64,000 bases of DNA from positions 124,001 to 188,000 of the forward strand of contig JAMPIX010000002.1 in the NCBI GenBank assembly GCA_024721275.1. The letters are read 5' to 3'. The notes below the pieces were generated by a model, which ran no database searches, was not told the DNA's origin, and saw only the letters and a program-made list of their open reading frames with translations. Positions 31,856 to 58,685 of this stretch are shown here, piece by piece. Numbering within the stretch: position 1 is the stretch's first letter; every line of letters begins with the position of its first letter. A program made the position numbers and the translations under genes. The stretch comes from Mycoplasma sp. (GTDB lineage Bacteria; Bacillota_I; Bacilli_A; Mycoplasmatales; Metamycoplasmataceae).

Positions 31856-31995
31856 TGTTCCTGCTTAATTTTGTTTTTAAATAGGGAACAGAAGTTAAAT
31901 TGTATCTTGTTACGCTAGTATTAACTAGATCAACTGATAAGAGTTCATCTCAACCACAAATGTAGTGCCTCTGTACAACCTATTTTAAAATTATA
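31856..31995 (-). promoter_or_regulatory. TPP riboswitch with promoter and translational switch
   Basis: An extended -10 (TGT-TATAAT, 31990-31995) precedes an aptamer at about 31894-31983. It shows the THI-box elements in order: P1 arms TTGTA/TACAA, GAGGCAC, TTGAGATGA (consensus CTGAGA), ATCAGTTGATCTAG and TTAATACTAGCGTA (consensus GATCTGGATAATGCCAGCGTA). Downstream, TGTTCC (31885-31890) can pair with GGAACA (31856-31861), which covers the AGGA Shine-Dalgarno of the gene at 31848. No U-tract follows, so thiamine pyrophosphate should block translation rather than terminate transcription. Confidence 0.88.
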
Positions 31996-41640: not shown

Positions 41641-42852
41641 ATGAAATATATTTATTTATGTGGACCAACAGTTTATGATGATGTTCATATTGGTAATATT
41701 AGACCTTTAGTAATTTTAGATATTTATCTAAATTCACTTAAATATAAAAAAGAAGAATTTACTTATATTCAAAACATAACCGATATTGATGACAAAATAA
41801 TTGATAGAGCAAAAAAAGAAAATGTAACTGAAGAAGAAATAACAAACAAATATACAAATAGATTTATTGATGTTATTGAAAAATTAAAAATAATGAAACC
41901 AAATCATATGCCAACAGTTGTAAAAAATATTGATTATATTATCGATTACATTGATAGATTAGTAAAAAATAACAACGCTTATGAAATTAACGGTAATGTT
42001 TACTTTGATACAAAATCTATCGATGGTTATGGAAAGCTTGCAAACATAAACGAGATTGAGCAAACAACAACTGTAGATGCAACAGATAAAAAAAATGAAA
42101 ACGATTTTGCTTTATGAAAAAAAACTGATCTAGGTATTAAATGAGATTCACCATGAGGAAAAGGAAGACCTGGCTGACATACAGAATGTTCAGCTTTTAT
42201 AGATAAATACGCAAATCATAAATCTATAGATTTACATGTAGGTGGCATTGATTTAAAATTTCCACATCATGTAAACGAGGATGCTCAGTATGTCGGAGCA
42301 AATGGTGTTCATATTGCAAAAGAGTGATTTCATATCGGACATTTAAATTTTGAAAATCAGAAGATGTCAAAATCATTAGGTAATATAAAAAAAGCTAAAG
42401 ACATCATTGCTGAATATGGATCTAATTTTATAAAATTACTTTTCTTTAATTCATCTCCAACAGCTCCACTAGATTTAAATGCTGAAATAATTAAAACAAT
42501 TAAATTAGAAGAAAAAAAATTAAATGACCTTATTAAAAAAATTAAACTATTTTTACTTTCAACAGATCAAGAAATGAAAGATGAAATAGATTTATCGCTT
42601 TTTGTAGAAAATATAAATAACTTTAATTTTTCAAATGCTAGAAAAAATTTAAATGATGCAATAAGTTTATTTAATAAAAATAATAATTTAAAAAATGCAA
42701 AAGAAATAATTGAAATGATGAAAATCATTGGTTTTGATTTTGAACTAAATATAAATCAAGAATTAAAACAACTTTATAAAAAATGAAATGAATTAAAAAA
42801 ATCTAAAAATTGAGATGAAGCAGATAAAATAAGAGATATTCTTTTAAAGTAA
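41641..42852 (+). CDS. cysS: Cysteine--tRNA ligase
   Basis: A 403-residue CysRS, short compared with the usual ~460 residues, as is common in mollicutes. '[20 protein letters not shown]' contains the zinc Cys and the HIGH-type motif; 'GRPGWHTECSAF' and '[10 protein letters not shown]' supply the other zinc ligands; '[18 protein letters not shown]' is the KMSKS loop. The C-terminal anticodon-binding domain is reduced. Several UGA codons are Trp ('PGWHTE'). The start abuts the FolT-like gene (GGAAAATAATTATTAATATG), and the end overlaps the convergent nuclease-like gene by nine bases. Confidence 0.95.
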
Positions 42853-43917
42853 ATCTTCTCCAGAAACTCCAAAAAGATTCATTTCCATTTCAGCTTGATC
42901 ATCTTCCATTTTTTTAATTAGGAAATCTATTTCACTTTGAATACTTTCAACAGTTGATTCATTAGTAATCAGTTTACTTTTTAGTCCTTTTTCTATTGTT
43001 AATAAATCATAATCAGGTTTTTCTTCTTCAATAGAAAAATCATTAAAAATATTTTGAAAATTTTCCATTATAAACTCGTCATTTTTAAAGTCTTCAAAAT
43101 GAGAAGATGAAGCATTTTTCTTATTTTCAATATAATGACCAATATTTTTTGCACTTGATTTTTTTAATATATTAAGTATGTTTTTGTATTTTCCTTTTTT
43201 AATAGAGAACTTTGAATTTTCTGTATAAAATTTTTTTAATACTTTATATCTATTATCTGATTGTTCTTTATTATCAGAAATTCATTTCATTCTTAATACA
43301 TCATCAAGTGAATAATGTCTAAGCATTTCCATAAGTATTTTGTCATCAATATCGATTTTGACCTTACTTATATCTTTTGGATTATAAGCTTTTGCATAAA
43401 GATAACCACCAATTATAGAAGCAACTGCACCATCACTAATCTTTGTATAATTCGAACTTTTTGTAAACTTACCTTTTTTGTAATTACTATAACTCATTTT
43501 TTCAATAGCTTTTGGAGAAATTTTGCTTTGATCAAGATTAAAATATTTAGTAGATTCATAGCCATAACTCATTTTTGATAATTTAGCTGAAAACACTCTT
43601 GTTTCTGGATATTGAGAAACTTCTTTAAAATTTCTTCCAAAAAGTTTAGCTAAAATTTTTCTTTCTAGTCCACCATTTCAAGAAATAAAAGTGGGGTTTG
43701 AAATATTTCATTCATTAAGAATATTATTTATTTCAGTTTTAGTAGTTTTAAAAACATTATTTTTTTTAATTTTTGTAAAATCAAGAACAACAACTTTTGC
43801 ATCACCTGTATTTACATTACAAATAGAAAAAGCATAAGGTAATTCATTCTCGGAATGAACCATTCATGATATTGGTGCTGATATTGCTTCAAAATCTATA
43901 TAAACTTCGTTACTCAT
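42844..43917 (-). CDS. Predicted DEDD-type nuclease-like protein (DUF2779-like)
   Basis: A 357-residue protein I do not recognise with certainty. The N-terminal 210 residues look like an RNase-H-fold 3'-5' exonuclease: 'EVYIDFEAISAP' gives an Asp-x-Glu pair (D8, E10), 'TFISWNGGLERKIL' a possible second motif (residues 77-88), and 'HYSLDDVLRMKWI' (D205/D206) a terminal Asp. The order fits DEDD enzymes and DUF2779. The C-terminal part is Lys/Asn-rich and then acidic ('IEEEKPDYDLLTIEKGL'). TATAAT ends seven bases before the ATG, so the mRNA looks leaderless. It lies next to an Abi_2 gene and a cyclase, which suggests defence. Confidence 0.5.
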
Positions 43918-43934
43918 TTTTAAAATTATATTAC

Positions 43935-44780
43935 TTATTCAAAATACTTAAAATATTTTTGATATATTTCATCTTTTATTTGCTCTGGCAAAATTTTATT
44001 ATTTTCTTTTCAAAAATTTAAAACTCTTTTTGGCGCATCAGGAATTAATTTAATTAATGATTTTACAAAATTACTTCAGCGAATAACACCTTTGCCTTTA
44101 AATGTTTTAAAAAATATTTTTTCCTTTATTGGATTCATATGTGCAATTCTATTTCTATATTTATTTATGTTACCCATATCTTTAAACGAAATATTCATTT
44201 TCTTGTAAATATTATTTTCTTTAAAATTTTTATTGTATTTTATTAATTTTTTTAAATCTCCCAATGATAAGGAATTTATAAATATTCAAATAGGAGATAT
44301 ATTATTTTTTAGTTTTCCTTTTAAAATTAATTCATCTTCTTCTATATGTTTTTCATGAATTGCATTAATTTTAGTTAAAAAATTTTTGAAATAATTATCA
44401 TCTTTTTTAAAAATATAACCATCTTTCGATAAATAGTTAAATGCATTATTTTTACTAATTGAATCAGCAATATTTCTTTTAAAAAGATGTTCAATCTCAT
44501 AAATTAGTTCAAAAACAAAAAATGATGATTTTTTACTAAATTCATGTAATTTTAAAATATCTGAAAGTTTAGTACCCCTAATATATTTTAGTCCTTGATT
44601 TTTGAAAATTTCTTTTCTAAACATATTGCTAAATTCATATATAAAATAAGCATAATTAATTTTTTCAAAAACATTTTTTACATCTATTTCTAATCCTCTT
44701 TTTGATAAAACATATTCCATTTCACTAATAGTGAAATATTCATTATTATAAGTGTCAATTTTTATGTCTTCTTTATTCAT
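43935..44780 (-). CDS. Abi_2-family (AbiD/AbiF-like) HEPN protein
   Basis: A 281-residue protein. 'ISEMEYVLSKRGLEI', 'SSFFVFELIYEIEHLFKRNI' and the C-terminal 'INKYRNRIAHMNP' match the Abi_2 family of abortive-infection proteins. R209 and H214 form the R-x4-H motif of HEPN ribonucleases. It is therefore predicted to be an RNase-type toxin that stops growth on phage infection; activity and trigger are inferred. A short structured RNA with its own promoter and terminator is encoded immediately upstream (44795-44869). The gene then has its own TATAAT seven bases before the ATG, so it is probably leaderless. UGA (Trp) occurs at residue 165 and in 'GVIRWSNF'. Confidence 0.72.
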
Positions 44781-44794
44781 TTTCTAAATTATAT

Positions 44795-44869
44795 CAATAA
44801 AAAAAATAGAAGCGGACGCATCCAACTTCTATCTAGGACATCCGTCCCCCCATACTTATTAGTATAGCA
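44795..44869 (-). ncRNA. Putative small structured RNA upstream of the Abi_2 gene
   Basis: On the minus strand an extended -10 (TGC-TATACT, 44861-44869) predicts a start near 44855. About 55-60 bases follow: GGGGGGACGGATGTCC, a short linker, then ATAGAAG...GGATGCGTCC...CTTCTAT and eight T residues (terminator stem 44806-44832). GGAC/GTCC forms a small 5' hairpin; alternatively GGACG pairs with CGTCC in the 3' part, which would compete with or form a pseudoknot with the terminator. It is strikingly GC-rich for this genome. A genuine short RNA is likely; its partner is inferred from position. Confidence 0.6.
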
Positions 44870-44896
44870 CTTTATTAAAGTAAAATATAAAACTTA

Positions 44897-45457
44897 CTAA
44901 AATCAAAATCATAGATTTTTTTTAGATGTAGATACCTTTGACTTATTTGGTTTGTGAGACATAAATAATTTTTTCATTTGATCTACAGACTTATTATCAT
45001 CTAAACCTTTTTTTAAAGGTAAAACTCATTTTTTAGTAGTGTATTCACCATAATTTTTGTTAGTAATTTTAGAACCATGAGCTGCTGCATTTATCGAGTG
45101 TGACACAATTAAATTTTCATTTCCTCCTTGTTTAAATAGTCCATAAGAAACTCCTATACCCATCTCTATTTCTAAATCCTCTTCTAAAAATAAAACTTTT
45201 CCGTCTATTTCATCAAATAGATTAATTATTTCTTTTTCATTATCTAAAGAAGAAATGTTAAAAAGCATTAAAACTCCATCTCCTATAAAATATGTTTTTC
45301 GATGACTTAAATTTTTTCAATTTCCAGTATATGAAGAAAATTGAGAAAATATTTTTTCATGTTTTGATAATTTTGTATCTAATGATTCGTCTAAATCAGA
45401 TGAATTTCTTACATCAATATATATTGAAATTATTTTTTTCTTTTGTTTTTTACTCAT
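44897..45457 (-). CDS. Class III nucleotidyl cyclase-like protein
   Basis: A 186-residue protein with the core of class III adenylate/guanylate cyclases. 'IISIYIDVRNSSDL' gives the first metal Asp (D15), 'YFIGDGVLMLFNI' the second (D60), 'EMGIGVSYGLF' the central strand, and 'SHSINAAAHGSKI' corresponds to the V-N-x-A-A-R-L block with the conserved Asn (N123); the usual Arg is His. The size suits stand-alone defence cyclases such as those of Pycsar systems, but no cyclic-nucleotide-binding effector is adjacent. Product nucleotide unknown. TATAAT ends six bases before the ATG, so the mRNA looks leaderless. Next downstream are the small RNA and the Abi_2 gene. Confidence 0.65.
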
Positions 45458-58553: not shown

Positions 58554-58685
58554 AAATATTTTATTCCATCCGGACTATACCGTCGGTTTGGGAATCTAAC
58601 CCAATCTGCTTTTCAGCTCGTAGACTTTACTACCGATTGACGAATTTCGCGTCACCCTTAAAATATTTAACTTGTAATTATTATA
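58554..58685 (-). promoter_or_regulatory. FMN riboswitch and promoter for ribU
   Basis: Minus-strand TATAAT (58680-58685) is followed by a complete RFN element, 58668 down to 58554. P1 arms AAATATTTTA and TAAAATATTT pair perfectly. Inside are AGGGTGACGCGAAATTCGTC, CGGTAGTAAAGTCTACGAGC, GCAGATTGGGTTAGATTCCC, and AACCGACGGTATAGTCCGGA followed by TGG, all diagnostic of the FMN aptamer. No T-tract follows; the palindromic P1 strand can pair with a later AAATATTTTG, so translational control or an AU-rich switch is possible. Confidence 0.93.

What the first reader, a model, noticed from the sequence alone, without database searches (positions are those of the whole stretch)
44795..44869. GC-rich small RNA with its own promoter and terminator directly upstream of the Abi_2 gene
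The element is the sharpest local GC spike in the region. An extended -10, a run of six G, two related GGA-C/TCC hairpins and a T8 terminator fit within 75 bases. GGACG can pair with CGTCC across the terminator, so two structures compete. Conserved RNAs have been reported upstream of abiF genes (the 'abiF' RNA motif), and HEPN toxins can be held inactive by RNA. This may be a divergent relative or a new class.
Basis: partly seen in the sequence, partly recalled or inferred. Interest (0 to 1): 0.78.

Follow-up and report, generated by a model that had tools for sequence, protein, structure and literature searches.

The report
Terminated small RNA preceding AbiF gene
In a mycoplasma-like bacterium, a tiny, unusually stable RNA with its own start and stop signals sits right in front of a gene for an RNA-cutting, self-toxic defence protein (AbiF). 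It is probably the RNA that holds the protein in check, and a second, unrelated RNA found here in Malacoplasma-type genomes occupies the same place.

Summary
On the minus strand, an extended -10, a G6 run, two related hairpins and a U8 terminator (about 55 nt) lie 18 nt before the ATG of an Abi_2/AbiF HEPN gene. The element ties for the most stable 50-nt fold among the positions sampled in 64 kb. A terminator this close to a start codon was found for 2 of 318 other genes in the loci fetched. It is not the Rfam abiF RNA: no match at any threshold, although the same search finds the motif in phage phiC2. The protein's only significant structural match is PbAbiF bound to its RNA antitoxin (8vz6). 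No orthologue of gene or RNA was found, so conservation of this RNA cannot be tested. But another Abi_2 lineage, in six Malacoplasma-like genomes, carries a conserved 41-44 nt promoter-hairpin-terminator RNA immediately upstream, with compensatory changes in 4 of 13 pairs, found only beside Abi_2, in five genomic contexts, once behind a divergent gene. Most likely reading: a type III-like RNA antitoxin of AbiF, of a class outside RF03085. Antitoxin function is inferred. The main rival is an ordinary terminator of the upstream cyclase-like gene.

The parts
44861..44869 (-). extended -10 promoter element TGC-TATACT of the small RNA (no recognisable -35)
   Evidence: sequence; TGNTATANT occurs 25 times in 128 kb of strand; TATAAT-only promoters with occasional TRTGN extension are the mapped promoter type in M. 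gallisepticum (PMC4245973)
44799..44853 (-). predicted small RNA, about 55 nt: AUGGGGGGACGGAUGUCCUAGAUAGAAGUUGGAUGCGUCCGCUUCUAUUUUUUUU (start inferred 7 nt after the -10)
   Evidence: fold -18.6 kcal/mol, z about -3; ties for lowest of 12,790 sampled 50-nt windows
44835..44848 (-). hairpin 1: GGGAC-GGAU-GUCCU
   Evidence: pair probabilities 0.91-0.98
44804..44834 (-). hairpin 2 / terminator: AUAGAAG stem, small internal loop, inner GGA-UGCG-UCC
   Evidence: pair probabilities mostly about 0.99; -11.6 kcal/mol and only terminator in the window within 30 nt of a downstream ATG
44799..44806 (-). T8 tract of the intrinsic terminator
   Evidence: sequence
44788..44793 (-). TATAAT, 7 nt before the ATG: probable separate promoter of the abi gene (leaderless type)
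   Evidence: 6/6 TATAAT at 6-7 nt before the ATG of all three island genes
43935..44780 (-). Abi_2/AbiF HEPN RNase-like protein, 281 aa in code 4, active-site motif RNRIAH (residues 209-214)
   Evidence: PF07751 68.2 bits; PADLOC AbiD 8e-17; only significant PDB fold match 8vz6_A, PbAbiF dimer with ncRNA, E 3.1e-5, prob 1.00; RN...H invariant in 42 aligned proteins
44897..45457 (-). upstream island gene, 186 aa, nucleotide-cyclase-like (weak Cas10b/PycC hits); candidate owner of the terminator in the rival reading
   Evidence: PADLOC E 2.5e-5 and 4.9e-4; one 45% relative, in G017
42844..43917 (-). downstream island gene, 357 aa, DEDD-exonuclease-like motifs read by eye
   Evidence: no significant Pfam or PADLOC hit; sequence motifs only

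Best explanation
The element is a small-RNA gene of about 55 nt. It has its own extended -10 promoter and intrinsic terminator, and it belongs functionally to the AbiF (Abi_2) gene behind it. Inferred mechanism: the RNA accumulates and its two hairpins bind the AbiF HEPN dimer, keeping the RNase inactive, as AbiFr and RCd22 do. The abi gene is transcribed weakly, from its own TATAAT just after the terminator or by read-through. If phage infection or stress lowers the short-lived RNA, free AbiF cuts RNA and arrests the cell. Shown here: anatomy, fold, AbiF identity with an intact active site, and non-membership of the Rfam abiF and Malacoplasma RNA families. Inferred: transcription, binding, neutralisation and the trigger.
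For: Promoter, two stable hairpins and terminator lie within 75 nt of sequence directly before an AbiF gene. The fold match of the protein is PbAbiF solved with its ncRNA. The layout equals the experimentally proven RCd22-abiFCd unit, including two hairpins per RNA (PMC12373285). Intrinsic terminators are sparse in this window, and only 2 of 318 non-Abi genes have one this close upstream, against 6 of 104 Abi_2 genes. Another mollicute Abi_2 lineage has a dedicated conserved RNA in the same position: pattern in 6 of 95 family genomes, always just upstream of Abi_2; found in no other context among 84,980 species; 4 of 13 pairs with compensatory change; a held-out member recovered by the covariance model at E 4e-9. 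The RNA is not antisense to abi: its duplex energy with the abi 5' end is weaker than with 97 of 100 random stretches.
Against: No homologue of the window's RNA or close homologue of its Abi_2 is known, so there is no covariation test. The RNA lacks the bulge nucleotides through which AbiFr inhibits AbiF. The hairpin lies 62 nt after the stop codon of a same-strand gene and could be that gene's terminator. One ordinary gene (in L085) shows the same terminator-then-TATAAT-then-ATG spacing. Most Abi_2 genes in the order (98 of 104) show no such unit.
Confidence: 0.56

Rival explanations
1. The hairpin and T8 are simply the intrinsic terminator of the upstream cyclase-like gene (44897-45457), followed by the leaderless promoter of abi; hairpin 1 and the TGCTATACT are incidental.
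For: Same strand, 62 nt after the stop codon. TATAAT 7 nt before the abi ATG makes a self-sufficient downstream promoter. An ordinary gene with the same spacing exists in L085.
Against: Terminators are rare after genes in this window. Mapped mycoplasma terminators usually have just two G-C pairs (PMC4245973), whereas here two GC-rich hairpins and the window's only G6 precede the T8. An extended -10 sits where a promoter for the hairpins should be. In Malacoplasma the analogous unit cannot be the neighbour's terminator in G248, where the neighbour is divergent.
Confidence: 0.24
2. A cis-acting attenuator of abi only: the nascent RNA can form GGACG/CGUCC as an anti-terminator, and some signal shifts the balance between termination and read-through; no action in trans.
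For: The anti-terminator pairing is the minimum-energy fold of the nascent RNA (-11.4 kcal/mol) before the terminator arm is made. RCd22 also represses abiF in cis by termination (PMC12373285).
Against: In the finished RNA the alternative is 4 kcal/mol worse (P about 0.003). abi has its own TATAAT after the terminator, so read-through may not be needed.
Confidence: 0.12
3. A small RNA unrelated to AbiF, which happens to sit there.
For: No conservation is available to tie it to abi.
Against: Position, and the precedents in C. difficile and Malacoplasma.
Confidence: 0.06

Closest known systems
RCd22-AbiFCd of C. difficile phi027/phiC2 (PMC12373285)
   Same: Own promoter, short RNA with two hairpin motifs, intrinsic terminator, then abiF on the same strand; the RNA binds and neutralises AbiF and also ends transcription early.
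   Different: RCd22 is about 100-130 nt with two RF03085 motifs and shares one promoter with abiF; the window RNA is about 55 nt, has no RF03085 motif, and abi has its own TATAAT behind the terminator.
abiF RNA motif, Rfam RF03085 / AbiFr of PbAbiF (PDB 8vz6)
   Same: Small structured RNA next to an AbiF gene; the window's AbiF model matches 8vz6_A over its whole length.
   Different: No covariance match; no AAGC...GCUCAAAUC asymmetric bulge. In AbiFr, nucleotides of a single-stranded bulge inhibit the RNase (PMC12737573).
Malacoplasma Abi_2-associated RNA
   Same: Promoter-hairpin-terminator RNA a few nucleotides before an Abi_2 gene in another mollicute family.
   Different: One hairpin, usually with a GAAA loop, and a fixed GUAGUU 5' end; model R1 gives the window element only 4.4 bits.
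Type III toxin-antitoxin systems (ToxIN, CptIN, TenpIN; from general knowledge)
   Same: Works-like: RNA antitoxin encoded directly upstream of an RNase toxin with a terminator in between.
   Different: Those toxins have another fold and the antitoxins are tandem repeats; here the toxin is HEPN and there are two dissimilar hairpins.

Membership tests
Rfam abiF RNA (RF03085) | Covariance match at the gathering score of 37 bits | tested here: not met
   none in window, own genome or 320 order genomes; phiC2 control gives 37.6 bits
Rfam abiF RNA (RF03085) | Outer stem, inner AGC/GCU stem, 3' bulge CAAAU(C) | tested here: not met
   absent from the sequence
AbiF / Abi_2 (AbiD/F) HEPN protein | PF07751 above cut-off | tested here: met
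   68.2 bits against 25.6
AbiF / Abi_2 (AbiD/F) HEPN protein | R-N-x3-H active site | tested here: met
   RNRIAH at 209-214, R/N/H invariant in 42 aligned sequences
AbiF / Abi_2 (AbiD/F) HEPN protein | AbiF fold | tested here: met
   8vz6_A E 3.1e-5, prob 1.00, model pLDDT 79.6
Type III-like RNA antitoxin of AbiF | Independent short transcript ending before the toxin gene | tested here: inconclusive
   promoter and terminator signals present; no expression data
Type III-like RNA antitoxin of AbiF | RNA binds and neutralises the toxin | not testable with these tools
   needs co-expression and pull-down
Type III-like RNA antitoxin of AbiF | RNA conserved with the toxin gene across genomes | tested here: inconclusive
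   no orthologue of the window unit; met for the separate Malacoplasma unit
   4.4 bits in the window element; no hit in G000

The most novel reading that the evidence does not exclude
Mollicute AbiF toxins are controlled by at least two very short RNA antitoxins (41-55 nt, little more than a terminator hairpin) that are unrelated in sequence to the known abiF RNA and to each other. RNA partners of AbiF, the proposed ancestor of Cas13, would then have turned over completely between lineages while the protein fold stayed.
Probability: 0.42. Interest if true: 0.77.

Novelty: new variant of a known kind. Interest (0 to 1): 0.58.

Why it matters
AbiF with its RNA is regarded as a forerunner of the RNA-guided nuclease Cas13, so knowing how freely its RNA partner can change bears on how a guide RNA could evolve. 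Mollicutes have few regulators, and no paper found in the library searched describes an RNA antitoxin of AbiF in them. The Malacoplasma RNA gives a clean, conserved, very small test object, and the window gives a second, independent candidate.

Tried and rejected
Rfam at gathering and permissive thresholds: only chance-level hits on the element. Looking for orthologues of the window Abi_2 or its RNA: none in the family by tblastn, genome contigs, viral contigs, phages or plasmids. Copies of the hairpin motif elsewhere in the genome: about as many loose matches as the reversed control. Antisense pairing to abi: weaker than random. Belonging to the Malacoplasma RNA family: no. A neighbour with the same cassette: G017 has the cyclase-like gene but its contig ends about 80 nt after it, and no such RNA is visible there. 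A conserved upstream RNA in all mollicute Abi_2: rejected, most lack one. The AlphaFold model of the cyclase-like protein was too poor (pLDDT 50) to search with.

Full report
What is there. The window is part of a mollicute genome (UGA read as Trp; G000, 613 kb). On the minus strand, between a cyclase-like gene (44897-45457) and an Abi_2 gene (43935-44780, 281 aa), lies the sequence TGCTATACT-AATAAGT-AUGGGGGGACGGAUGUCCUAGAUAGAAGUUGGAUGCGUCCGCUUCUAUUUUUUUU. The fold has -18.6 kcal/mol (z about -3) and ties for the lowest of 12,790 sampled 50-nt windows on both strands. The G6 is the only G6/C6 run in 64 kb. The competing pairing is favoured only in the nascent RNA; in the finished RNA it is 4 kcal/mol worse.

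Promoters. TGNTATANT occurs 25 times in 128 kb of strand, so its presence exactly upstream of the hairpins is unlikely to be chance; no -35 was found. A perfect TATAAT stands 6-7 nt before the ATG of all three minus-strand genes here, which suggests leaderless mRNAs. The Abi_2 gene thus probably has its own promoter behind the RNA's terminator, unlike RCd22-abiFCd, where both share one promoter (PMC12373285). In M. gallisepticum mapped promoters are TATAAT-type with occasional TRTGN extension, and terminator stems usually carry only two G-C pairs (PMC4245973); the element is much more GC-rich than that.

The protein. PF07751 at 68 bits, PADLOC AbiD, active site RNRIAH. An AlphaFold model from 42 mollicute sequences (pLDDT 79.6) has one significant match among 350,542 PDB chains: 8vz6_A, the PbAbiF dimer bound to its ncRNA (E 3.1e-5, prob 1.00). 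The TM-scores are moderate (0.57-0.59).

Genomic setting. In all 13 relatives examined (10 genera other than the window's own), cysS and rlmB are neighbours; in the window the three minus-strand genes and the element sit between them. This looks like an insertion, consistent with a mobile defence island. The cyclase-like gene has one 45% relative in the order (G017); the Abi_2 has none close in its family.

Membership of abiF RNA. No match to RF03085 in the window, own genome or 320 genomes of the order (a search with strict filters in which no control genome rang). The positive control, phage phiC2, gives 37.6 and 19.5 bits for its two motifs. The conserved GCUCAAAU bulge is absent; in AbiFr, nucleotides of a single-stranded bulge inhibit the RNase (PMC12737573). 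It is not a member; it may still work like one.

An independent parallel. Among 118 Abi_2 upstream regions of the order, one clade stood out. Six genomes of one genus (titled Malacoplasma or uncultured Mycoplasma where titles are shown) carry GUAGUUCCCG...UUAUUGAAAAAUAA...CGGGGGUUUUUU, 41-44 nt, 4-22 nt before the Abi_2 ATG. The pattern occurs once in each of these six and in none of 89 other family genomes. A stricter pattern found only four contigs, all from this set, among 84,980 species genomes. Four of 13 pairs show compensatory change in four sequences (6 of 500 shuffles reach this). A covariance model recovers the held-out fifth sequence at E 4e-9; four further weak hits (E 0.0025-0.008) in other genera were not followed. 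The unit sits in five different contexts (after rpsI, plsY, rplL, a 180-aa gene, and next to a divergent gene in G248), so it travels with Abi_2; in G248 it cannot be the neighbour's terminator. In G242 an IS30-like element interrupts the abi gene while the RNA stays intact. Rfam has no family at the RNA.

Control. With one fixed criterion (hairpin of -10 kcal/mol or better, T-run starting within 30 nt of the ATG), 2 of 318 non-Abi genes and 6 of 104 Abi_2 genes score (Fisher p 0.004). Five of the six are the Malacoplasma clade and are not independent, and the test was framed after the pattern was seen. It therefore shows that the position is rare, not that it is general.

Weighing. Best: an AbiF-associated antitoxin RNA (0.56). 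The chief rival, the terminator of the cyclase-like gene (0.24), is real: that gene ends 62 nt upstream on the same strand, and one ordinary gene shows the same spacing. An attenuator acting only in cis (0.12) and an unrelated RNA (0.06) remain. No expression or binding data exist, and for the window's own RNA no covariation can be computed.

Verdict. Observation confirmed; interpretation partly supported. Novelty is a new variant of a known kind, raised above routine mainly by the conserved Malacoplasma RNA found on the way.

Noticed in passing
L145-L150, L151-L154 (G242, G050, G244, G246, G248, G250): Conserved 41-44 nt RNA GUAGUUCCCG...CGGGGGUUUUUU directly upstream of an Abi_2 gene in six Malacoplasma-like genomes; not in Rfam; compensatory changes; five genomic contexts.
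   Followed up: yes
L145 (G242:C1 about 1146785-1149828): An IS30-like transposase gene interrupts the Abi_2 gene near codon 30, while the adjacent RNA is intact; an intact relative exists in G250.
   Followed up: partly
L179 (G026:C1:705500-712500): Between dnaK and a methyltransferase gene, a TATAAT-CCCAU hairpin-terminator unit precedes a truncated Abi_2-like gene and is repeated 1.1 kb on before a decayed remnant; the dnaK tail seems duplicated with it, so a dnaK terminator is not excluded.
   Followed up: partly
window 42844-45457: Three-gene minus-strand island between cysS and rlmB, which are neighbours in 13 of 13 relatives; cyclase-like, AbiF and a DEDD-like protein, each with TATAAT 6-7 nt before its ATG.
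   Followed up: partly
window 44897-45457: Cyclase-like 186-aa protein with weak PADLOC hits to Cas10b and PycC; a 45% relative in G017 stands next to a DprA-like gene.
   Followed up: partly
window 44833-44853 minus: The predicted RNA starts with a six-codon frame AUG GGG GGA CGG AUG UCC UAG; probably chance, but it lies where a leaderless start would be.
   Followed up: no
L016, L020 (G027); L037 (G156): Other Abi_2 genes of the family with GC-rich hairpins upstream (GAGGGG-AUAAA-CCCCUC and a 9-bp GGGCAUAAC hairpin), without a clear terminator.
   Followed up: no
window 58554-58668 and 31889-31982 minus: FMN and TPP riboswitches at Rfam gathering scores.
   Followed up: no
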